From positions 1-37,567 of the forward strand of contig MHAR01000020.1 in assembly GCA_001803045.1 (NCBI GenBank): a DNA stretch of 37,567 nucleotides, given 5' to 3'. The position numbers were made by a program, and so were the translations under genes. A model generated the notes under the pieces. That model saw only the letters and a list, made by a program, of their open reading frames with translations, was not told the origin of the DNA and made no database searches. Below are positions 11,416 through 28,491 of this stretch, piece by piece. Each line of letters starts with the position of its first letter. Position 1 is the first letter of the stretch. The stretch comes from Ignavibacteria bacterium RIFOXYB12_FULL_35_14. GTDB taxonomy: Bacteria > Bacteroidota > Ignavibacteria > Ignavibacteriales > Ignavibacteriaceae.

Positions 11416-14181
11416 TTGTTAACACCCGAACAGCAAGCCAGAGCAAATATTGACAAACAGCTTGAACAATCAGGCTGGTTCGTTCAAGATTTTAAAGAGC
11501 TTAATCCTTCAGCTTCATTAGGAGTTGCTGTTAGGGAATATCCCACCGAAAGCGGTTCCGCAGATTACATTTTATTCGTTGATAGAAAGCCAATCGGAGT
11601 CATTGAGGCAAAAAGAGAAGGTATAACGTTGAGTGCTGTCCATGACCAGACTACTAGATACGCAGCCGATAAATTAAAATTCATCTTCAAAAAAGAAGAG
11701 CTTCCTTTTCAATACGAATCAACCGGAACAGAAACATATTTCACTGATGCACGGGATCCCGTTCCAAGGCAAAGAGAGATATTTAATTTTCACAAACCGG
11801 AAACTTTGTACGCTTGGATTAAACAGGAAAATTCACTTCGAGCAAGACTAAGATTGTTTCCACCACTAAATACCGATGGCTTAAGAGCATGTCAAAGCAT
11901 TGCAATAAAAAACCTTGAAGAATCTTTCGCCGATAATAGAGCAAGAGCTCTAATTCAAATGGCGACAGGTGCCGGAAAAACATACACTGCTATCACATCA
12001 GTTTATCGGTTGTTAAAATTTGCAAAAGCAAAACGGATTTTATTCTTAGTTGACACGAGAAATCTTGGTAAGCAAGCCGAACAGGAATTTCAAGCATACA
12101 AACCTAATGACGACAAGAGACTTTTCACCGAACTTTACAACGTGCAGCGTCTCCGTTCAAATTTTATTGATACCTCCACACATGTATGTATCAGTACTAT
12201 TCAGAGAATGTACTCCATCCTCAAAGGTAAGGAACTTGATGAATCTCTAGAAGATGATTCGCCGTATGAATCTAAAATCATTGATAAACCCGTTGATGTT
12301 GCTTACACGCCAAACGTTCCTATCAAAACATTCGATTTCATAATTATTGATGAATGCCACCGCTCAATTTATAATTTGTGGAAGCAAGTGCTTGATTACT
12401 TTGATGCTTTTATGATTGGACTTACCGCAACTCCCGATAAGCGAACCTTTGCATTTTTCCATGAAAATATTGTTAGCGAGTACACATTAAAGCAGTCAAT
12501 TGCGGACAGAGTAAATGTTGGATACGATGTTTACACAATTGAAACCGAGATCACTCAGCATGGTGCAAAAATTCAAGCAAAGCAATTTGTAGATCTCCGC
12601 AATAAAACGACAAGAAAGAAGGAGTGGAAGCAGCTTGATGATGAAGTTGTTTATGAAGCTAATCAACTTGATAAAGATATTGTAAATCCAAGCCAGATTC
12701 GAAACATAGTTCGCGAATACAAAAGAGTTCTGAAAGAAGGATTTTATCCCGAGCGAGGAAATGAATACGACGTCCCCAAAACATTGATCTTTGCAAAAAC
12801 TGACAGTCATGCGGAAGATATTGTTCACATTGTGCGTGAAGAGTTTGGGGAAGGAAATGATTTCTGTAAAAAGATAACCTACAATACGAAACCCGAAGAT
12901 CCCGAAGCGATTCTACAAAAATTCCGAACAGGATATTATCCTCGAATTGCAGTAACCGTTGATATGATTGCAACGGGCACCGATGTTAAACCGATTGAAG
13001 TGCTCATCTTTATGCGTGATGTTCGCTCACGTAATTATTTCCAGCAGATGATTGGTCGTGGAACAAGATCATTCAGTAAAGACGAGCTTGTCAAAGTTAC
13101 GCCAAGTGCAAAGCTGAACAAGGAAAGATTTTATATTATTGATGCTGTTGGTGTATTCAAATCAATTAAGGTTGATTATCCTATTGTAGATAAAAAGCCA
13201 ACCGTTCCTCTAAAGGATTTAATGAAAATGGTAATCCTGCAGCCGGATGAAGACAATCTTTCATCGCTCGCTACCCGGCTGTCAAAATTAGATAAACAAA
13301 TTTCCGATACTGACAGAGAAAAATTTAGAGAGCTCTCTGAAGGCAAAAGCATTACTGAAGTTGCAGTTAATCTTGCAAATGTTTACGATCCGGATGTGGT
13401 AGATAATAACGTAAGAAAAAAGTTCAATCTGTCAGAAACTGCAGAACCAACTGAAGATCAAATTCAATCGGTCATTCAACCATTCATTCAATCAGCCATC
13501 CGTCCATTCGACAATCCAAAGCTGCGTGATTTTATTGAAACTGTCCGTCAAAAAATTTATCAGATAATTGATGAAACAAATCCCGACAGAGTAACATTTT
13601 CCGGTTTCGACACTCAAGCAAAAGAAAACTCAGAAGAGATAATAAATAACTTCCGAAAGTTTATTGACGAGAATAAGAATGAAATAATTGCTTTGAAAAT
13701 CCTTTACTCGCAGCCGGAGCGACGAAAAGAATTGACTTACAATATGGTTAAGGATTTACGGGACGCTTTGCTTAACCCGCCGTATAATTTATCGATAGAT
13801 CAGGTTTGGAATGCATACCAGCATGTTGAACCTAAAGCCGTAAAACTCCGAACTCCCAAGGGAATGCTGACAGATATAATTTCTTTAATTAGGTTTGAGT
13901 TGAAAATTGATACAATGCTTGAACCTTACAGTGAAATTGTTAACCGCAGCTTCCGTGATTGGGTGTTTAGACGTAATGCCGGACCAGTACAGTTTACAAA
14001 TGAACAGATGGAATGGCTGAGAATGATAAAAGACCATGTTGTGTCTTCTGTAAGAATTGATAAAGATGATTTTGACAGAACACCGTTTGACCGTGAAGGT
14101 GGACTCGGAAAGTTTTATCAGATATTTGGTGAGCAGACAGAGAAAATACTTGCAGAAATTAATGCGGAATTAGCAGCTTGA
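11416..14181 (+). CDS. hsdR: Type I restriction enzyme, motor/nuclease subunit HsdR
   Basis: This 921-residue protein translocates and cuts DNA in a type I restriction complex. It starts at TTG 11416 behind AAAAGGG. The N-terminal nuclease has D50 and the E64-A-K66 motif (GSADYILF and GVIEAKREG). The SF2 motor follows: Walker A ATGAGKT (183-189), IIDECHR (DECH 312-315), TATP (337-340), and the arginine-finger motif QQMIGRGTR (543-551). The C-terminal third resembles the EcoEI-type HsdR tail that contacts the methylase, ending GGLGKFYQIFG and NAELAA. It opens an operon whose other type I parts are hsdS (16741) and hsdM (19175). The 3' end is followed at once by a palindromic repeat and a RAYT gene. 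A second, diverged copy of the last ~30 codons lies 700 bp downstream. Confidence 0.95.
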   Translation: MLTPEQQARANIDKQLEQSGWFVQDFKELNPSASLGVAVREYPTESGSADYILFVDRKPIGVIEAKREGITLSAVHDQTTRYAADKLKFIFKKEELPFQYESTGTETYFTDARDPVPRQREIFNFHKPETLYAWIKQENSLRARLRLFPPLNTDGLRACQSIAIKNLEESFADNRARALIQMATGAGKTYTAITSVYRLLKFAKAKRILFLVDTRNLGKQAEQEFQAYKPNDDKRLFTELYNVQRLRSNFIDTSTHVCISTIQRMYSILKGKELDESLEDDSPYESKIIDKPVDVAYTPNVPIKTFDFIIIDECHRSIYNLWKQVLDYFDAFMIGLTATPDKRTFAFFHENIVSEYTLKQSIADRVNVGYDVYTIETEITQHGAKIQAKQFVDLRNKTTRKKEWKQLDDEVVYEANQLDKDIVNPSQIRNIVREYKRVLKEGFYPERGNEYDVPKTLIFAKTDSHAEDIVHIVREEFGEGNDFCKKITYNTKPEDPEAILQKFRTGYYPRIAVTVDMIATGTDVKPIEVLIFMRDVRSRNYFQQMIGRGTRSFSKDELVKVTPSAKLNKERFYIIDAVGVFKSIKVDYPIVDKKPTVPLKDLMKMVILQPDEDNLSSLATRLSKLDKQISDTDREKFRELSEGKSITEVAVNLANVYDPDVVDNNVRKKFNLSETAEPTEDQIQSVIQPFIQSAIRPFDNPKLRDFIETVRQKIYQIIDETNPDRVTFSGFDTQAKENSEEIINNFRKFIDENKNEIIALKILYSQPERRKELTYNMVKDLRDALLNPPYNLSIDQVWNAYQHVEPKAVKLRTPKGMLTDIISLIRFELKIDTMLEPYSEIVNRSFRDWVFRRNAGPVQFTNEQMEWLRMIKDHVVSSVRIDKDDFDRTPFDREGGLGKFYQIFGEQTEKILAEINAELAA

Positions 14182-14190
14182 GGGAGAAGG

Positions 14191-14242
14191 AAAGATGACA
14201 TCTTTTCAAGCTCCACATAGCATTCAGAAAGATGTCATCTTT
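14191..14242. repeat. REP-like palindromic element, copy 1
   Basis: Two 15-base arms, AAAGATGACATCTTT (14191-14205) and AAAGATGTCATCTTT (14228-14242), are exact reverse complements of each other and are separated by 22 bases. Each arm is itself a palindrome around one central base. The element can fold as one 15-bp stem or as two small hairpins. It lies between the hsdR stop and the RAYT start, the usual place for a REP flanking its transposase. Confidence 0.9.
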
Positions 14243-14253
14243 ACATCTTAAAT

Positions 14254-14835
14254 ATGAAAAAGATAGATTACCACATACCGTTATACAAAGATCATCTCTA
14301 CCACGTTTATAATCGTGGTAATGGGAAAGAACAAATATTTTTTAATGAAGGAAACTATGATTACTTTTTAAGACAATATCATAAGTACACAGCAGATTTA
14401 TTGGACACCTTTGCTTATTGTTTATTATCAAATCACTTTCATTTGTTACTTCGTCCTAAAGTTAATGATCCAGATTTAATCAGTGAACAATTCAGAAAGT
14501 TTTTTATTGCCTACTCAATGGCTATCAATAAGCAGGAAAAAAGAAAAGGCAATTTATTTCAAAGAGCATTTAAGAGAAAAATTATTGAAGATGAAAAGTA
14601 CTTTTACTCGGCAGTATATTATATCCATTCCAATCCGGTTCATCATGGTTTTGTTAAGGATTTAACAACATATAGATTCAGTTCTTTTAATTCATTGGTA
14701 GGAAATAAAGAAACTAAGCTATGCAGAAATGAGGTAATGGAATGGTTTGGAGGGAAAAAGAATTTTATTGAGTTTCACACTGGAATAAAGAAAACTTATT
14801 TTAGTGATAATTATATAATTGAAGATGATAAGTGA
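14254..14835 (+). CDS. REP-associated tyrosine transposase (RAYT, Y1 family)
   Basis: This 193-residue protein belongs to the IS200/IS605-like Y1 transposase superfamily, in the REP-associated branch. It has HVYNRGN (residues 17-23), the HUH metal motif as HFH (61-63) in LLSNHFHLLLRP, and the late motif YYIHSNPVHHGF (122-133), which holds the likely catalytic tyrosine. Proteins of this kind cut single-stranded REP hairpins with a 5'-phosphotyrosine intermediate. Copies of the same palindrome stand 11 bp before and 9 bp after the gene. Three more lie in the same operon, so the substrate is probably that element. No clear ribosome site precedes ATG 14254, and expression may depend on readthrough from hsdR. 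The gene interrupts the hsdR-hsdS order and separates hsdR from a second hsdR-like tail. Confidence 0.9.
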   Translation: MKKIDYHIPLYKDHLYHVYNRGNGKEQIFFNEGNYDYFLRQYHKYTADLLDTFAYCLLSNHFHLLLRPKVNDPDLISEQFRKFFIAYSMAINKQEKRKGNLFQRAFKRKIIEDEKYFYSAVYYIHSNPVHHGFVKDLTTYRFSSFNSLVGNKETKLCRNEVMEWFGGKKNFIEFHTGIKKTYFSDNYIIEDDK

Positions 14836-14844
14836 GAAATGCAT

Positions 14845-14895
14845 AAAGATGACATCTTTTCACGTTTCAATTGCATACACAAAGATGTCATCTTT
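14845..14895. repeat. REP-like palindromic element, copy 2
   Basis: The arms AAAGATGACATCTTT (14845-14859) and AAAGATGTCATCTTT (14881-14895) are identical to those of copy 1. They flank a 21-base spacer that keeps the opening TCACGTT and an internal GCATACAC. The orientation matches copy 1. The element closes the RAYT unit and directly abuts the hsdR-like tail remnant. Confidence 0.9.
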
Positions 14896-14896
14896 G

Positions 14897-15007
14897 GCTG
14901 AACTGTCTCCATTCGTTGACGAAGGCGGACTAGGGAAATTCTATCAACTCTTTGGAGGAGATACAGAAAAAATTATTGAGGAATTAAATAAAGAATTAGC
15001 AGCATAA
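14897..15007 (+). pseudogene. Orphan 3' end of a second hsdR allele
   Basis: Starting right after the palindrome, the frame reads AELSPFVDEGGLGKFYQLFG and then closes with EELNKELAA and a stop. This matches the last ~30 residues of the intact HsdR upstream (REGGLGKFYQIFG and NAELAA), with roughly two thirds of bases identical. Extending the frame leftwards runs through the palindrome to an ATG at 14819 with unrelated sequence, so the 62-codon reading is not a genuine HsdR. The piece is most simply the leftover tail of an older or different hsdR whose body was lost or replaced. The divergence excludes a recent duplication of the present gene. Confidence 0.8.
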
Positions 15008-15031: not shown

Positions 15032-16057
15032 ATGGCTACATTAGAACAAGAAAATCAAAAGCGATCAGAGTTAGAAAAAAATCTCAGTGAATTAGCAGGC
15101 ATAACACCTGAATCACTAATTAAGAAAGCAGAATTGGGGACTGCATTATCTTTCGAAGATGGTCTACCTTACTTTAAGCGTACATTAAAGTTATTTAACG
15201 ATCTTAAAAATTCTAATCTTGATGGTATACCTTATAAAGCTATTAACCAACTGAATACGGTTGCAACTCAAGCAATAGGTGAGTTCAATAATATTAAAGG
15301 CTTCACTATCGAACAACATCCGCAAAACACAAAAGGGGAGAGAGACCAATTAATAAACACAATCCGGGATAGGTATGATAACTATTATGAGGTTTTAGCT
15401 CCACATATAGCGTACTCGATTAGAAAAGGAACAGATTTCGAAGCACTTGAAAGTCAAGCAAGAAACACACTAAAAGAATTAAAAGATAAAATTGTTGAGG
15501 AACAGAAGAAATCAAAGTTAGAATCAGATGGAATTTTAGACTCAATGCGTAAGGCTGCCGGTGAAGCCGGTGTATCGCAGAATGCAATTTATTTTAGTAT
15601 AGAAGCTGATGAGCATAAAAAAACAGCAGGAAATTGGCTAACTGCTACGAAATGGATGGCTTTCGCAACTATACTATTCGCAGTGTTGGCTACAATTGCT
15701 TTTTTTATTTTTACTAAGGATTTTACATTTGAACAAGCGCTCCAATTGACAGTTGCAAAAATTTTAGTTTTCTCCGTTTTCTATTATGCTACGGTATGGT
15801 GCGGAAAGAATTATCGTGCATATATTCATAATTATGTAGTGAACAAGCACAGACAAAATGGACTAAGTACCTTTCAAGCCTTTGTAAAAGCCACAGAAGA
15901 CCCAGCAATTAAAAATGCAGTATTGCTAAAGGCAACAGAAAGTATTTTTGGACTTACGAATAGTGGATTCATTTCTTCAGAATCTGAACAGTCCGGAAGC
16001 TCACAGATTCTTGAGATAATTAGGTCTGGTTTTGAATCAAAAGGTGGAAAAGGTTAA
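15032..16057 (+). CDS. Two-TM coiled-coil protein of the restriction operon, function unknown
   Basis: I do not recognise this 341-residue protein. Residues 1-190 are charged and mostly helical, with a coiled-coil opening (LEQENQKRSELEKNLSEL) and a Lys/Glu-rich stretch near 150-170. Two membrane segments follow: about 205-228 (WMAFATILFAVLATIAFFIF) and 236-256 (LTVAKILVFSVFYYATVW). A soluble tail of about 80 residues ends ESKGGKG. The gene has a strong AAAGGAG site (15015-15021) about 10 bases before the ATG. Its stop shares a base with the next start (TAATG), tying it to the hsdS-like head that follows. A membrane-anchored accessory or abortive effector of the restriction system is possible from context alone. 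No catalytic motif is visible. Confidence 0.6.
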   Translation: MATLEQENQKRSELEKNLSELAGITPESLIKKAELGTALSFEDGLPYFKRTLKLFNDLKNSNLDGIPYKAINQLNTVATQAIGEFNNIKGFTIEQHPQNTKGERDQLINTIRDRYDNYYEVLAPHIAYSIRKGTDFEALESQARNTLKELKDKIVEEQKKSKLESDGILDSMRKAAGEAGVSQNAIYFSIEADEHKKTAGNWLTATKWMAFATILFAVLATIAFFIFTKDFTFEQALQLTVAKILVFSVFYYATVWCGKNYRAYIHNYVVNKHRQNGLSTFQAFVKATEDPAIKNAVLLKATESIFGLTNSGFISSESEQSGSSQILEIIRSGFESKGGKG

Positions 16058-16116
16058 TGCATAATAACCTTCCTTTCAACTGGTCTCGCGTTAAATTTGG
16101 TGAAAGAGAATTATGA
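16057..16116 (+). pseudogene. Orphan 5' end of hsdS, now a 19-codon leader
   Basis: An ATG overlapping the previous stop (TAATG) opens a 19-codon reading MHNNLPFNWSRVKFGEREL. It parallels the start of the intact HsdS (SLPVNWFWVKLGD); 28 of 36 aligned bases match. Its TGA overlaps the ATG of the nuclease gene (ATGA at 16113-16116). The original operon evidently ran from the membrane protein straight into hsdS. A nuclease gene now sits behind the first 18 or so hsdS codons, and a complete hsdS with its own head follows. The remnant still forms a translationally coupled link between its neighbours, so it may serve as a leader peptide. Confidence 0.75.
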
Positions 16117-16748: not shown

Positions 16749-18126
16749 AGATTATAGCCTTCCTGTAAACTGGTTCTGGGTTAAACTTGGTGATGTAGGT
16801 GAAGTCGTAGCGGGGGGAACTCCTTCAACAAAAGTGCATGAATATTTTGATGGTGAAATTGCCTGGATTACACCAGCTGATCTTACGGGATACAGAAATA
16901 AATATATTTCGAAAGGCAGAAGAAATATTTCGGAAGAAGGACTAAAAAATTCTTCAGCACGTTTAGTACCTAAAGATAGCATATTATTTTCATTCAGAGC
17001 TCCCATTGGTTACGTTGTTATTGCAGCTAATGAAATATCAACAAATCAAGGATTTAAGAATTTACTTCCAAATAAAAAGGTGGATAGTGAATTCGTTTAT
17101 TACTATCTGAAGTCTGCAAAGAGACTCGCAGAGGAGAATGCTTCAGGTACAACTTTTAAAGAAATATCAGCAAAGAATTTTTCAAGGCTTCCCATCCCAC
17201 TCCCGCCACTCCCCGAGCAGAAAAAAATTGTTGAGAAGATAGAAGAACTTTTCAGCCAATTGGACAGCGGAGTTGCTTCTCTTAAAAAAGCAAAAGAACA
17301 GTTGCGTATTTATCGGCAGAGCGTGCTGGCACATGCGTTAAGCGGGCGCTTGTTGCAAAAAGATGACATCTTTTCACATTCCGATAGCGTGCAGAAAGAT
17401 GTCATCTTTAGCGGGAAAGCAGCAGAACCACAATCAAATTATGCACCAATAAAGAGAGATGACATCTTTCACGAACGGGATAGCATTCCAAAAGATGTCA
17501 TCTCTAATGGTATCCAATTACCGGAAGGCCTGCCCGCCGAAGACTTGGCGAAGGCGGGTTGGAAATGGGTGAAGCTGGGTGAATTGATTTCACCTTCAAA
17601 AGAAAGATTTGAGCCTTTAGAAAATGATAATCAAAAATATATTGGGCTTGAACACATTGAAAAAGGGACAGGAAAGATTTTAGGAAATGAGAATTCTGAT
17701 ACAGTTAGAAGTACAAAAACAATTTTTAGCAAAGGAGACTTACTTTATGGAAAGCTGCGACCATATCTAAACAAAGTTACTATTGCTGAATTTAATGGTG
17801 TCTGCTCAACAGATATTCTAGTATTTAATAAGCGAGAGGGTTTATCAAATTCATTTTTAAAATACAGAATGCTAATGGAAGATTTTGTTAGTTATGCTCA
17901 AAACCATATGAGTGGAGTTCAACATCCAAGAATTAATTTTAAGTCTCTCTCAGAATATGATTTAATGTTGCCAAACTATAACCAACAAACCCAAATCGTA
18001 GAAGAAATAGAATCCCGCTTTGCGGGATCAGAAGCACTTGAAAAAGCGATAAATGATAGCTTAACAAAAGCAGAAACATTAAGACAAAGTATTTTGAAGA
18101 GAGCCTTTGAGGGGAAATTAGTTTAA
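16741..18126 (+). CDS. hsdS: Type I restriction specificity subunit HsdS with palindrome-encoded linker
   Basis: This 461-residue protein sets the DNA target of the methylase and restriction complexes. Target-recognition domain 1 spans about 1-150 (LPVNWFWVKLGDVG to FSRLPIPLPPLPEQ). The first conserved helix is about 158-205 (EQKKIVEKIEELFSQLD to AHALSGRLL). Domain 2 runs from about 274 to 405 (WKWVKLGEL to LMLPNYNQQTQ), and the second helix follows (LRQSILKRAFEGKLV at the end). The linker of about 68 residues is unusually long. Two copies of the REP-like palindrome encode residues 207-223 (KDDIFSHSDSVQKDVIF) and 239-255, both in the same frame. A third, unrelated palindrome encodes residues 264-273 and splits the LPEG-W motif. 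The gene has no strong ribosome site and begins inside the nuclease gene, so it is probably translated by coupling. Confidence 0.93.
   Translation: MNKDYSLPVNWFWVKLGDVGEVVAGGTPSTKVHEYFDGEIAWITPADLTGYRNKYISKGRRNISEEGLKNSSARLVPKDSILFSFRAPIGYVVIAANEISTNQGFKNLLPNKKVDSEFVYYYLKSAKRLAEENASGTTFKEISAKNFSRLPIPLPPLPEQKKIVEKIEELFSQLDSGVASLKKAKEQLRIYRQSVLAHALSGRLLQKDDIFSHSDSVQKDVIFSGKAAEPQSNYAPIKRDDIFHERDSIPKDVISNGIQLPEGLPAEDLAKAGWKWVKLGELISPSKERFEPLENDNQKYIGLEHIEKGTGKILGNENSDTVRSTKTIFSKGDLLYGKLRPYLNKVTIAEFNGVCSTDILVFNKREGLSNSFLKYRMLMEDFVSYAQNHMSGVQHPRINFKSLSEYDLMLPNYNQQTQIVEEIESRFAGSEALEKAINDSLTKAETLRQSILKRAFEGKLV
17359..17409. repeat. REP-like palindromic element, copy 3, inside hsdS
   Basis: The arms AAAGATGACATCTTT (17359-17373) and AAAGATGTCATCTTT (17395-17409) flank a 21-base spacer. 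The total of 51 bases is exactly 17 codons, read K-D-D-I-F at the left arm and K-D-V-I-F at the right, with no stop. The arms are identical to the copies around the RAYT gene. Confidence 0.9.
17455..17505. repeat. REP-like palindromic element, copy 4, inside hsdS, with compensated arms
   Basis: The left arm is AGAGATGACATCTTT (17455-17469) and the right arm AAAGATGTCATCTCT (17491-17505), with 21 bases between. Each arm differs from the consensus at one base, and the two changes are complementary, so the long 15-bp pairing is still perfect. The 51 bases again encode 17 residues in the same frame as copy 3. The two copies start 96 bases (32 codons) apart. Confidence 0.88.
17530..17559. repeat. 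30-bp palindromic insertion splitting the LPEG-W motif of hsdS
   Basis: CCCGCC (17533-17538) pairs with GGCGGG (17553-17558) around GAAGACTTGGCGAA. Removing 17530-17559 would join LPEG (260-263) to WKWVKLGEL (274 onward), the usual opening of a second recognition domain. The 10 extra residues LPAEDLAKAG therefore look like an in-frame insertion. The GC-rich bases contrast with the AT-rich surroundings. This is a different palindrome family from the GATGACATC element. Confidence 0.75.
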
Positions 18127-20661: not shown

Positions 20662-20713
20662 AAAGATGACATCTTTTCACGTTTTGAACTACATACTGAA
20701 AGATGTCATCTTT
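20662..20713. repeat. REP-like palindromic element, copy 5
   Basis: The arms AAAGATGACATCTTT (20662-20676) and AAAGATGTCATCTTT (20699-20713) flank a 22-base spacer beginning TCACGTT. The orientation is the same as copies 1-4. It lies between the convergent ends of hsdM and the dedA remnant, so it may also serve as a bidirectional transcript-end hairpin. Confidence 0.88.
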
Positions 20714-20724
20714 AAGCTGCAGCA

Positions 20725-20820
20725 TTACTTCTTCTTCAGAAACTTATGTCTTACAAATTCCGAGATTGCCGGGATGACTGAGATTACAACTATCACCACA
20801 ATCACTAACGAAAAGTTTTT
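20725..20820 (-). pseudogene. Orphan 3' end of a second dedA-like gene
   Basis: Read on the minus strand, the bases encode KNFSLVIVVIVVISVIPAIS followed by EFVRHKFLKKK and a stop. The intact DedA ends KNNFSWVIVVIIFLSILPGI followed by IEYIRHKMQKA, so this is a clear homologue of the last ~31 residues. It lies one base beyond the intact gene's stop, in a different frame. It is best explained as the surviving tail of a paralogue or replaced allele; the sequence differences show it is not a fresh duplication. Confidence 0.75.
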
Positions 20821-20821
20821 T

Positions 20822-21478
20822 CTACTCCTCCGGATTTAGTTTTGCTTTCTGCATTTTATGCCGAATGTATTCAATTATTCCCGGCAGGATTGACAGAAAG
20901 ATGATAACAACAATCACCCACGAGAAATTATTTTTCACAAAATCAAGATTACCGAAAAAGAAACCGCCGTAAATAAAGATTGCAACCCAGCCAATTCCAC
21001 CAACCACATTGTAGGTAATAAATTTTGAGTAAGTCATGCTGCCAACTCCTGCTACGAATGGTGCAAATGTTCTCACAATTGGAACAAACCTCGCTATGAT
21101 TATTGTTTTGCCGCCGTATTTCTCATAGAACTGATGGGTTTTATCAATATGCTCCTTCTTTAGAAAAGGTATTTTCCAATTGAATATTTTCATGCCGATG
21201 TAGTGTCCAATCCAATAATTAACCGTATCACCAAGCACTGCAGCTACAGATAAAATGAAAAACAAAAGATGAACGTTAAATGAACCCTTTGCTGCAAATG
21301 TACCTGCAGCGAAAAGCAGCGAATCTCCAGGTAAAAAAGGAGTGAACACAAAACCGGTTTCAGCAAAAATTACTGCAAATAAGATTGAATAGGTTAGTGT
21401 CCCATATTGCAAAATAAGTTCGTGTAAATGAACATCTAAGTGTAAAAATAGATCAATAAGTTTTGAAATATATTCCAT
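20822..21478 (-). CDS. DedA family membrane protein
   Basis: This 218-residue polytopic membrane protein has the DedA/SNARE-associated signatures. FTPFLPGDSLLFAAGTFAAKG (about 47-67, with the family's E-x-G and PG-D features), YEKYGGKTIIIARFVPIVRTFAPFVAG (about 118-144) and a final membrane helix are visible. Several bacterial DedA proteins recycle undecaprenyl phosphate or other lipid carriers across the inner membrane; which lipid applies here is unknown. The gene is convergent with the restriction operon. A second dedA-like tail follows its stop after a single base, which marks the edge of the rearranged region. The upstream gap of 165 bases to the symporter gene contains an imperfect inverted repeat. 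Confidence 0.92.
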   Translation of the reverse strand: MEYISKLIDLFLHLDVHLHELILQYGTLTYSILFAVIFAETGFVFTPFLPGDSLLFAAGTFAAKGSFNVHLLFFILSVAAVLGDTVNYWIGHYIGMKIFNWKIPFLKKEHIDKTHQFYEKYGGKTIIIARFVPIVRTFAPFVAGVGSMTYSKFITYNVVGGIGWVAIFIYGGFFFGNLDFVKNNFSWVIVVIIFLSILPGIIEYIRHKMQKAKLNPEE

Positions 21479-21523
21479 TATTCTTTCTTAGCGATTTAGC
21501 TCACGCAGAATGTTAAAATTTAT

Positions 21524-21591
21524 TTCTTAATCCTTTTCTTAATCTACATAAAAGATTTAACAACAAGTTAGATTAAGATTATGATTAAGAT
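21524..21591. repeat. Imperfect inverted repeat of CTTAATC units
   Basis: The left arm TTCTTAATCCTTTTCTTAATCT (21524-21545) pairs with 21570-21591 (AGATTAAGATTATGATTAAG onward), with mismatches mainly in the four-base middle. Further GATTAAG units follow to about 21597. It sits between the symporter's stop side and the dedA start, where it could end the symporter transcript or form part of the dedA leader. Confidence 0.5.
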
Positions 21592-21643
21592 TAAGAAAAA
21601 TTTCCAGTAATAACTGCGTACCGCTTGTTAGTGAATTAAAACT

Positions 21644-22978
21644 TTATTTATCAAGATTTCCTTGCCAGAGATATTCATCCGTTTCTTTAACAATAATTTT
21701 ATTTAAGAAAATCAAGGAAATCAAATTAGGTATTGCCATTAATGCATTTGTAATATCTGCAAAAGACCAAACGGCTTTAAGTGAAAGCACCGATCCTATC
21801 ATTACGAAACCAACCCAGATCCATCTGTATGGTTTGGTTATTTTAGTTCCGAACAAATACTCTGCCGCTTTTTCTCCATAGTATGACCAGCCTAAAATGG
21901 TTGAAAATACAAATGTTAGAAGACCTACCGTTAAAATAATTGGACCAATAATCGGTAAATCGGAAAAAGCTGCTTTGGTTAATGATGCTCCATTTAATCC
22001 ATTTATCCATTCATTGGAATTTACGATAACAATTCCAGTTAAAGCACAGACAATAACAGTATCCCAAAAAGTTCCTGTTGAGGAAACTAATGCCTGGCGG
22101 ACAGGATTTTTGGTTTGTGCTGCTGCCGCTACAATCGGAGCACTTCCTAGACCGGATTCATTAGAAAATAATCCTCGCGAAATTCCAAATCGAATTGCTT
22201 CTTTAACTCCTGCACCAACAAATCCGCCGAGCATAGCATGACCTGTGAAAGCACTTTCAAAAATTAATTTTATTGTGGCTGGGATTGAAGATACATTCAG
22301 AATTAATATTATTAAGCAGCCCAGCACATAAAAGATTGCCATGAAGGGAACAAGTCTTTCGCATACTTTTGCAATCGATTTAATTCCTCCAATGATTACG
22401 ATTGCGGTTAAAACAGTGAGAATAACTCCCGTTATCCATGGAGAAATTTGAAAGGTTTCATTTACTAAGTGAGAAATAGAATTTGCCTGGACCATGTTAC
22501 CAATTCCAAATGCAGTAACTGAAGTAAATGCAGCAAAAAGAATTGCAAGGAATTTGTTGTTCATACCTTTTTCTAAAACATACATTGGTCCGCCTGCCAT
22601 CAAACCATCTTTTGTTGTTACACGATATTTTACTGAAAGAAGAGCTTCAGAATATTTAGTTGCAATTCCAAAAACGCCGGTTAGCCACATCCATAAAACA
22701 GCTCCGGGACCACCGCTTGCAACGGCAGTGGCAACACCAACTATATTGCCGGTTCCAATAGTGGCGGCTAATGCTGTTGTCATTGCACCAAATTGGCTTA
22801 TATCTCCTTCACCTTCTTTATTTCTGCCGAAAGAAATTTTTATTGCCTTTCCTATAAATCGTTGAATGAATTTTAGACGAATAGTGAGAAAAATATGTGT
22901 ACCAAAAAGAAGTACAAGCAACGGAATTCCCCAAACCCAATCGCTTATTTGACCAAGTAGATTTTCAAAACCTTGCAT
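21644..22978 (-). CDS. AGCS family amino acid:sodium symporter
   Basis: This 444-residue inner-membrane transporter probably imports alanine or glycine with sodium. Family signatures include ATIGTGNIVGVATAVASGGPG (about 72-92), with the residues that line the substrate and sodium sites, and GLFSNESGLGSAPIVAAAAQ (about 269-288). About 10-11 hydrophobic segments are visible, and the length fits the family. ATG 22978 opens MQGFENLLGQISDWVWG, a normal N-terminus for this group. It lies upstream of dedA on the same strand with a 165-base gap, so co-transcription is possible but not clear. Confidence 0.92.
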   Translation of the reverse strand: MQGFENLLGQISDWVWGIPLLVLLFGTHIFLTIRLKFIQRFIGKAIKISFGRNKEGEGDISQFGAMTTALAATIGTGNIVGVATAVASGGPGAVLWMWLTGVFGIATKYSEALLSVKYRVTTKDGLMAGGPMYVLEKGMNNKFLAILFAAFTSVTAFGIGNMVQANSISHLVNETFQISPWITGVILTVLTAIVIIGGIKSIAKVCERLVPFMAIFYVLGCLIILILNVSSIPATIKLIFESAFTGHAMLGGFVGAGVKEAIRFGISRGLFSNESGLGSAPIVAAAAQTKNPVRQALVSSTGTFWDTVIVCALTGIVIVNSNEWINGLNGASLTKAAFSDLPIIGPIILTVGLLTFVFSTILGWSYYGEKAAEYLFGTKITKPYRWIWVGFVMIGSVLSLKAVWSFADITNALMAIPNLISLIFLNKIIVKETDEYLWQGNLDK

Positions 22979-27438: not shown

Positions 27439-28491
27439 ATGAATATCATAACAAAAGCAATTTCAAATTTATTAGCTATTTCTTTGATAATGGTTTTAAT
27501 GTATGGATGTCAAAACAAATCGGAAGAAACGATAACTGTTAAAAACAGTGTAGAACTTGATACGGTTGCAGTTAATGCTGTTAAAGTCGAGTACAGAGAC
27601 ATAAAATCATCAAAAACATATACCGGTTCATTGGAAGGTGAAGAACAGGCTTATGTTGTGGCTAAAATATCCGAGAGAATAGTTGGTATCAAAGTTCGTG
27701 TTGGAGATACTGTTGAAAAAGGAAAATTGGTTGTTGAATTAGATAAAGTTGGAGCTGCATCTCAATATTATCAAGCAGAAGCAGGTTATTTAAATTCTAA
27801 GAAAGATTTAGAAAGAATGCAGGCGTTATACAGCGAAGGAGCTATCTCACAGCAAATGTTTGATGGCGCTCAAACAGCTTTCAATATTGCAAAAGCGAAT
27901 TATGAAGCCGCTAAAAGTCTTGTTGAACTAACCGCACCGATTTCGGGAGTAGTAGCAGAAATTAACAGTGAAGCCGGAGATCTAGCAATGCCGGGTATAC
28001 GAATAATCACTATTGCAAAAATCAATCGGTTAAAAGCAATCTTCAATGTTGGCGAACAGGATATTATGAGCCTGATGGTTAATCAACCGATTGAAATATT
28101 TTCAGAATTGAAACCGGAATTAGTGATGAGGGGAACAGTAATTCAAATCTCTAAATCGGCGGATGTTGCGTCAAGAACATTTGAAATAAAGGGATTGATC
28201 CCAAACAGCAATGACAAATGGTTTAAACCGGGAATGTTTTGTCGAGTAAGGATCATTTTGAAAAATCAAAAAGGTTCTTTAGCCGTTCCATCGCTAGCTA
28301 TAATCACAAATGACAACGACAGAGGTGTATTTATTATCAACGATGGTAAGGCTTATTTTAGAAAAGTGACTGAAGGCATAACAGAAGATACGCATACTGA
28401 AATACTAAATGGTTTAAAAGAAAATGAGAATGTGGTTACACTTGGTATGAATAATCTAAAAGATGGAATCCCTGTTAACGTTGTGAAATAA
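27439..28491 (+). CDS. RND efflux periplasmic adaptor (membrane fusion) lipoprotein
   Basis: This 350-residue adaptor bridges the inner-membrane RND pump and the outer-membrane channel. The leader ends in LMVLMYGC-like sequence, with C24 the likely lipid-modified residue. The biotinyl-lipoyl halves flank a short coiled hairpin (VVAKISERIVGIKVRVGDTV near 75-95; LTAPISGVVAEINSEAGD near 165-182). Barrel and membrane-proximal domains follow (WFKPGMFCRVRI near 260). AAAGGAG lies at 27420-27426 before ATG 27439. It sits between the channel and pump genes. Confidence 0.9.
   Translation: MNIITKAISNLLAISLIMVLMYGCQNKSEETITVKNSVELDTVAVNAVKVEYRDIKSSKTYTGSLEGEEQAYVVAKISERIVGIKVRVGDTVEKGKLVVELDKVGAASQYYQAEAGYLNSKKDLERMQALYSEGAISQQMFDGAQTAFNIAKANYEAAKSLVELTAPISGVVAEINSEAGDLAMPGIRIITIAKINRLKAIFNVGEQDIMSLMVNQPIEIFSELKPELVMRGTVIQISKSADVASRTFEIKGLIPNSNDKWFKPGMFCRVRIILKNQKGSLAVPSLAIITNDNDRGVFIINDGKAYFRKVTEGITEDTHTEILNGLKENENVVTLGMNNLKDGIPVNVVK

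What the first reader, a model, noticed from the sequence alone, without database searches (positions are those of the whole stretch)
20725..20900. dedA tail duplicated at the island's other edge
An orphan of ~31 codons homologous to the end of DedA lies one base after the intact dedA stop, in another frame and clearly diverged. It sits between dedA and palindrome copy 5. This is the third duplicated gene end in 7 kb, which points to repeated exchange at gene boundaries rather than chance.
Basis: partly seen in the sequence, partly recalled or inferred. Interest (0 to 1): 0.55.

Follow-up and report, generated by a model that had tools for sequence, protein, structure and literature searches.

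The report
Leftover end of a replaced gene
Beside a complete dedA membrane-protein gene lies the last seventh of a second dedA: it is most likely what is left of the bacterium's own copy, which a foreign dedA replaced in the same spot.

Summary
In detail: window 20725-20820 (minus) holds 31 codons plus a stop, homologous to the DedA C-terminus, one base after the intact dedA stop and in another frame. It is not a tandem duplication. The orphan is identical at 27/30 residues and 80% of 90 nt to the dedA of the only other genome held from the genus (G001), at the same locus beside the same symporter; the intact dedA tail is 60% identical to that gene over 90 nt. The symporter shows the orphan's level of divergence (79% per 90-nt window, 87% aa), while the intact DedA is 62% identical to G001's and up to 77% to those of other genera. 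So the orphan is the native gene's stump and the intact dedA the newcomer: displacement in situ with a scar. None of 61 relative loci scanned has a tandem dedA. The hsdR tail is a second, separate scar. Orphan gene ends were found at 2 of 46 gene ends here, 3 of 102 in six related type I restriction loci, 0 of 294 in control loci. This supports exchange at gene ends, but does not tie this scar to the island.

The parts
20725..20820 (-). Orphan: last 31 codons and stop of the native (displaced) dedA; no ATG in frame, presumably untranslated
   Evidence: 27/30 aa and 80% of 90 nt identical to G001 dedA; 17/30 aa to the intact dedA here
20821..20824 (-). Joint: stop codon TAG of the intact dedA plus one base; the native gene resumes in an A-run
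20822..21478 (-). Intact dedA (218 aa, DedA family), the newcomer at least from about codon 60 to its stop; the first 60 codons cannot be assigned
   Evidence: NCBIfam NF008102 E 1.3e-80; 62% aa to G001, 72-77% to the best twelve other DedAs; AU test p 0.009 against sisterhood with G001 dedA alone, p 0.0855 with L066 added
21479..21643 (.). Intergenic stretch 5' of dedA, not alignable with G001; holds a dispersed inverted repeat (21523-21598)
21644..22978 (-). Native sodium:alanine symporter gene, 87% aa to G001, the same neighbour as in G001
20662..20713 (.). Palindrome pair ('copy 5'): solo REP-like copy between hsdM and the stump
14191..14895 (+). REP-like pair, RAYT-like transposase gene (14254-14835), REP-like pair: the likely source of the palindromes
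   Evidence: NF047646, E 2.7e-18, 66 bits, below the curated 80; no Pfam match
14900..15007 (+). Second scar: orphan HsdR tail just after the right-hand palindrome; 91% aa to an HsdR tail of G012 and one of two of G087, 70% to the intact HsdR tail here
14076..14181 (+). Mismatched tail of the intact hsdR: identity with G029 HsdR is 92-100% aa in eight of nine body blocks (76% in one) and 68% in the last block
   Evidence: switch point read by eye from the alignment
16057..16116 (+). Possible hsdS head remnant (MHNNLPFNWSRVKFGEREL), seen by eye; a decayed look-alike follows the same upstream gene in G015
   Evidence: not reached at E 1e-3

Best explanation
The orphan is the surviving 3' end of the chromosome's own dedA. 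A dedA from another lineage replaced the native gene at its own place and in its own orientation. The import begins somewhere between the symporter stop and about codon 60 of dedA and runs through its own stop codon; one base later it is joined to the native gene, 31 codons before the native stop, so a dead native tail was left behind. Shown: the orphan is of the native type, the intact gene of another, the locus is the same, and no native body is found in the assembly. Inferred: recombination guided by similarity on the 5' side and joined at a few bases in an A-run on the 3' side (homology-facilitated illegitimate recombination). The stump probably does nothing; the imported DedA does the family's job (handling of membrane lipid carriers, recalled).
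For: Orphan 27/30 aa with G001 dedA, next best 20/30 (L066), intact dedA here 17/30. A 98-nt DNA match at 81.6% runs through the native stop. Orphan/native identity over 90 nt (80%) is like the neighbouring symporter (mean 78.7% of 90-nt windows); 14 of 17 changed codons are silent, so the stump was probably under selection for most of the time since the split. Intact tail against native: 60%. The symporter and seven further genes lie in the same order in G001 at 67-89% aa. The genome search finds three DedA places at E up to 1, none a native body. Tree of 57 proteins: G001 dedA in a starred group of eight (97/83) without the window's dedA; pairing with G001 alone rejected, p-AU 0.009.
Against: Window + G001 + L066 as one group is not rejected (p-AU 0.0855); the tree's bootstrap had not settled; the window's dedA has no close sister (best 77%), so the donor is unknown. 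Only one other genome of the genus is held, so 'native' rests on G001 with weaker support from L066. One conserved neighbour is also low, 67% aa (27439-28491), so low identity of dedA alone would prove little; the orphan carries the argument. The 5' joint cannot be placed: the intergenic DNA does not align, and residues 1-60 are 80% identical to G001, as they are in most relatives (70-85% in the best twelve). None of ten other relatives' 3' flanks printed begins with an A-run of six, so the microhomology is unproven.
Confidence: 0.82

Rival explanations
1. Old tandem paralogues: the ancestor had both dedA types side by side; G001 lost one, this genome lost all but the tail of the other.
For: Gives the same end state: one intact type beside the tail of the other.
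Against: None of 61 relative loci scanned holds a second dedA or dedA tail within the flanks held, up to 1.5 or 6 kb (three extra hits, E 0.11-0.4). The stump's changes are mostly silent, so the loss would have to be recent.
Confidence: 0.1
2. Gene-end replacement as by prophages that enter a gene and bring a new gene end (the e14/icd type, recalled): native dedA body, new tail from an element since deleted, native tail displaced.
For: Fits the order intact gene - displaced native tail, and is close to what the hsdR scar looks like.
Against: Most of the body is foreign too: residues 61-120 and 121-183 of the intact DedA are 52% and 57% identical to G001, the symporter 87%. No palindrome was found at the joint and there is no room for an element in the one base between.
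Confidence: 0.04
3. Tandem duplication of the gene end inside one lineage, later diverged (the plain reading of 'duplicated').
For: Position directly after the gene, same strand.
Against: The orphan matches G001's dedA (80% of 90 nt) far better than its supposed parent (60%). A decaying copy would not move towards another genome's gene.
Confidence: 0.02
4. Assembly artefact joining two strains.
For: The genome is a 95-contig assembly; reads are not available here.
Against: The foreign dedA has genus-type DNA on both sides (symporter; native tail), so a single false join would still leave a foreign dedA beside the native symporter in one of the strains.
Confidence: 0.04

Closest known systems
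Xenologous gene displacement in situ (concept recalled; the terms were seen only as counts in search listings)
   Same: A foreign homologue takes the place of the native gene with the neighbours unchanged.
   Different: Here the event left a readable stump of the native gene, so direction and one joint can be read from the sequence.
Homology-facilitated illegitimate recombination (HFIR; passages of PMC6382021)
   Same: RecA-dependent integration of DNA with large patches that do not match, as the passages describe it; that one end is anchored by similarity and the other joined at microhomology is recalled.
   Different: Described from transformation experiments; here only inferred from one A-run joint.
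REP-associated tyrosine transposases and their palindromes (passages of PMC2817692)
   Same: A small transposase-like gene between palindromes, solo palindromes nearby, and two copies of a related unit in genome G002, each with an in-frame stop in the transposase gene.
   Different: Palindromes are A+T-rich and I saw no GT(A/G)G head; the exact motif is at seven places in the genome; the unit is not at the dedA joint. I call it RAYT-like and do not file it as a REP system proper.

Membership tests
Xenologous gene displacement in situ | Gene at the locus is of another lineage than the gene the genus had there | tested here: met
   orphan 80%, intact tail 60% to G001 dedA over 90 nt; AU p 0.009 against pairing with G001 alone, but p 0.0855 for window + G001 + L066
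Xenologous gene displacement in situ | Same position and neighbours as the displaced gene | tested here: met
   symporter and seven further genes in order in G001 on one side; the other side differs between the two genomes
Xenologous gene displacement in situ | Supported place of the newcomer in another lineage | tested here: inconclusive
   best 77% (L062), no supported sister
Tandem gene duplication | The copies are each other's closest relatives | tested here: not met
   orphan closest to G001 dedA
HFIR | Microhomology of a few bases at one joint (recalled) | tested here: inconclusive
   A-run at the joint; the donor's 3' flank is unknown; none of ten other relatives' flanks begins with six A
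HFIR | RecA dependence | not testable with these tools
   needs experiment
RAYT / REP unit (window 14191-14895) | Transposase gene of the REP-associated family | tested here: inconclusive
   NF047646 E 2.7e-18, 66 bits, curated cut-off 80; no Pfam match
RAYT / REP unit (window 14191-14895) | Flanked by two palindromic repeats | tested here: met
   14191-14242 and 14845-14895
RAYT / REP unit (window 14191-14895) | GT(A/G)G head next to a GC-rich palindrome, usually more than 100 copies (abstract and passages) | tested here: not met
   A+T-rich palindrome, exact motif at seven places; heads looked for by eye only

The most novel reading that the evidence does not exclude
Gene ends are a traded commodity in these genomes. 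RAYT-like units (and perhaps GxxExxY units) travel with captured gene tails and enter homologous genes near their 3' end, so that the gene is completed by the incoming tail and its own tail is pushed to the far side. The hsdR scar here, hsdR scars in G012 and G029, and an alpha-2-macroglobulin tail that flanks two copies of the unit in G002, once without the gene body, would be instances. The dedA stump would be a member only in a wider sense.
Probability: 0.17. Interest if true: 0.62.

Novelty: new member of a known kind. Interest (0 to 1): 0.38.

Why it matters
In-place replacement of a gene by a distant homologue is, as far as I recall, mostly inferred from conflicting trees. Here the replaced gene left a stump that is still readable, which gives the direction of the event, suggests that it is recent compared with the split from G001, and gives one exact joint. 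The pattern of gene-end scars around type I restriction loci is a countable signature by which such events could be surveyed.

Tried and rejected
Tandem paralogues: I scanned 61 of the 122 dedA loci fetched outside this genome (L004-L027 and L042-L078; several are the same place fetched twice, and flanks are at most 1.5 or 6 kb); no second dedA. L028-L032 and L079-L134, more distant, were not given to that scan.

Prophage-like gene-end replacement at dedA: set aside because dedA from codon 61 on is foreign too. Native dedA body elsewhere in the assembly: not found.

Empty site of the island: not possible. The gene that follows dedA in G001 (a fructokinase by my recall) has only 22-25% matches in this genome.

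The idea that the hsdR orphan is simply the displaced tail of a G029-like hsdR did not hold cleanly: its DNA is 76% identical to the G029 tail but 86% to G012's, so hsdR is a mosaic of more than one source. The script ended in an error after printing its tables for five of six relatives; its dedA part was rerun, L186 was not.

Gene-end scan: of the eight stretches fetched six were given (not L186, L187), and L162/L163 of G002 were not given. I had seen the scars of L181, L183 and L184 before I chose the sets, so the contrast with the controls describes and does not test.

GxxExxY units as carriers of gene ends: of 30 loci 3 showed the pair of end motifs by my pattern, and 2 of those 3, both in hsdR, had a flanking duplication; the pattern was read off those same two, so this is no test. 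RAYT-like units: flanking direct repeats at 3 of 5 loci that have palindromes (window and the two of G002, which are copies of each other), none at L220 and L222; at L220 the palindromes form a cluster and the outermost ones were used, so that case is unfair; L223 has no palindrome.

A viral-contig search for the gene at 15032-16057 found nothing. Paper searches for displacement with remnants listed no paper that I recognised as describing such a stump; of two papers I saw passages, of the others the listing only.

My note gives rougher figures for hsdR.

Full report
What is there. Window 20822-21478 (minus) encodes a complete DedA-family protein of 218 residues (NCBIfam NF008102, E 1.3e-80). 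Its stop is followed by one base and then, in another frame, by 31 codons and a stop at 20820-20725 that match the DedA C-terminus: 17 of 30 residues, 54 of 90 bases against at most 42 in 20,000 shuffles. A search of the whole genome with the intact DedA finds three places at E up to 1: itself, a distant paralogue (26%), and the orphan. Beyond the orphan lie the palindrome pair 20662-20713 and the end of hsdM.

Which copy is native. The only other genome of the genus among those held in the family (80 searched) is G001. Its contig of 14,135 bases fits JACAFC010000148.1, Ignavibacteriaceae bacterium L.E.IG.6, in length and place. It has the same locus in the same order. Protein identities, from dedA outwards: dedA 62%, symporter 87%, FAD/NAD protein 89%, then 89%, 83%, 67%, 88%, 85% and 76%. 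The orphan and its stop align with the end of G001's dedA over 98 nt at 81.6%. Over 90 nt the orphan is 80% identical to G001's dedA, close to the mean of 78.7% (range 64-90%) for 90-nt windows of the symporter, while the intact dedA tail is 60% identical to G001's and 60% to the orphan. Of 31 codons compared 17 differ, 14 of them silently. As protein the orphan matches G001 at 27 of 30, L066 at 20, and the intact DedA and several others at 17. The orphan therefore diverged like the genus backbone and, it seems, under selection as part of a working gene. The intact gene did not.

Where the intact gene comes from. Its twelve best relatives are 72-77% identical; they include genomes of other genera of the family and assemblies named Melioribacter and Stygiobacter. 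In a tree of 57 proteins G001's dedA falls in a starred group of eight (97/83) that excludes the window's gene, which has no supported sister; the bootstrap had not settled. The AU test rejects window + G001 as a pair (p 0.009) but does not reject window + G001 + L066 (p 0.0855). A donor cannot be named.

Not a tandem repeat. In 61 relative loci no second dedA or dedA tail was found; three extra hits had E of 0.11 to 0.4. Among them the symporter lies beside dedA only in G001 (flanks of at most 1.5 or 6 kb). No native dedA body is found elsewhere in the assembly, so the native body was lost, not moved.

How it most likely happened. The left joint is exact: the imported stop TAG, one base, then the native frame in AAAAACTTTTC. 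The right joint cannot be placed: the 165 bases between dedA and the symporter do not align with G001 and hold a dispersed repeat with twelve matches in the genome, itself included (40 of 98 candidates scored); and residues 1-60 of DedA are 80% identical to G001, no less than in many relatives. Residues 61-183 are 52-57% identical to G001 and so are foreign. I infer recombination guided by similarity on the 5' side and joined at a few bases on the 3' side; events of this sort go by the name homology-facilitated illegitimate recombination (passages of PMC6382021; the microhomology part recalled). The stump has no ATG in frame; GTG codons occur from its sixth codon on. I take it to be untranslated; that was not tested.

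Is it part of a wider pattern? I scanned the first and last 35 residues of genes of at least 130 aa for orphan copies on the same strand within 2.5 kb at E up to 1e-3. The window has two in 46 ends, the hsdR tail and the dedA tail. Six related type I restriction loci have three in 102 ends (hsdR tail in G012 and in G029, hsdM head in G087). Thirteen dedA loci, three palindrome loci and the G001 contig have none in 294 ends; the only hits there were two of one pair of complete tandem genes. The sets were chosen after I had seen the scars of G012, G029 and G087, so the contrast is descriptive. The possible hsdS head at 16057 is below the threshold.

The hsdR scar differs from the dedA scar. The hsdR body is 92-100% identical in protein to G029's in eight of nine blocks (76% in one) and 68% in the last block; the orphan tail sits just after a palindrome - transposase gene - palindrome unit and matches tails of G012 and of one G087 locus at 91%. 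The transposase gene resembles REP-associated tyrosine transposases (66 bits against a curated 80), and relatives at 67-73% exist in three other genera. In G002 two copies of a related unit, 96.7% identical over 837 aligned bases, are each flanked by copies of the tail of an alpha-2-macroglobulin-like gene, in one case without the gene body. At dedA there is no palindrome between the intact gene and the stump, so I do not assign the dedA event to this unit or to the island.

Verdict. A foreign dedA displaced the native one in place and left its tail. The kind of event is known; the readable stump makes it a good example. Interest moderate.

Noticed in passing
window 17359-17409 and 17455-17505: Two REP-like palindrome pairs, one degenerate, lie inside the hsdS reading frame, read in frame, in the stretch between its two specificity halves.
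   Followed up: no
L162 (G002:C1:1796800-1805000) and L163 (G002:C1:1856000-1864500): Two near-identical RAYT-like units flanked by copies of the 3' end of an alpha-2-macroglobulin-like gene; in L163 the gene body is absent, as if the unit had carried the tail along.
   Followed up: partly
L181:5573-6347 and L183:4938-5690: A GxxExxY gene with GTCTGAACC...GGTTCAGAC ends sits after hsdR and is followed by a second copy of the last 15 codons of hsdR; the two copies differ at 1 of 46 bases in L181.
   Followed up: partly
L184:3892-4032 (minus): Orphan hsdM head of 47 codons, 96% identical to the window's hsdM, upstream of a Fic gene and a complete hsdM.
   Followed up: partly
window 15032-16057 and L168:3456-4487: A rare 341-aa protein with hydrophobic stretches (by eye), found in 2 of 391 genomes of the class, this one included; in G015 I saw no restriction genes around it, but a decayed hsdS-like head follows it (by eye).
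   Followed up: partly
window 21523-21598: Inverted repeat with CTTAATCTTAATC units, dispersed in this and related genomes.
   Followed up: no
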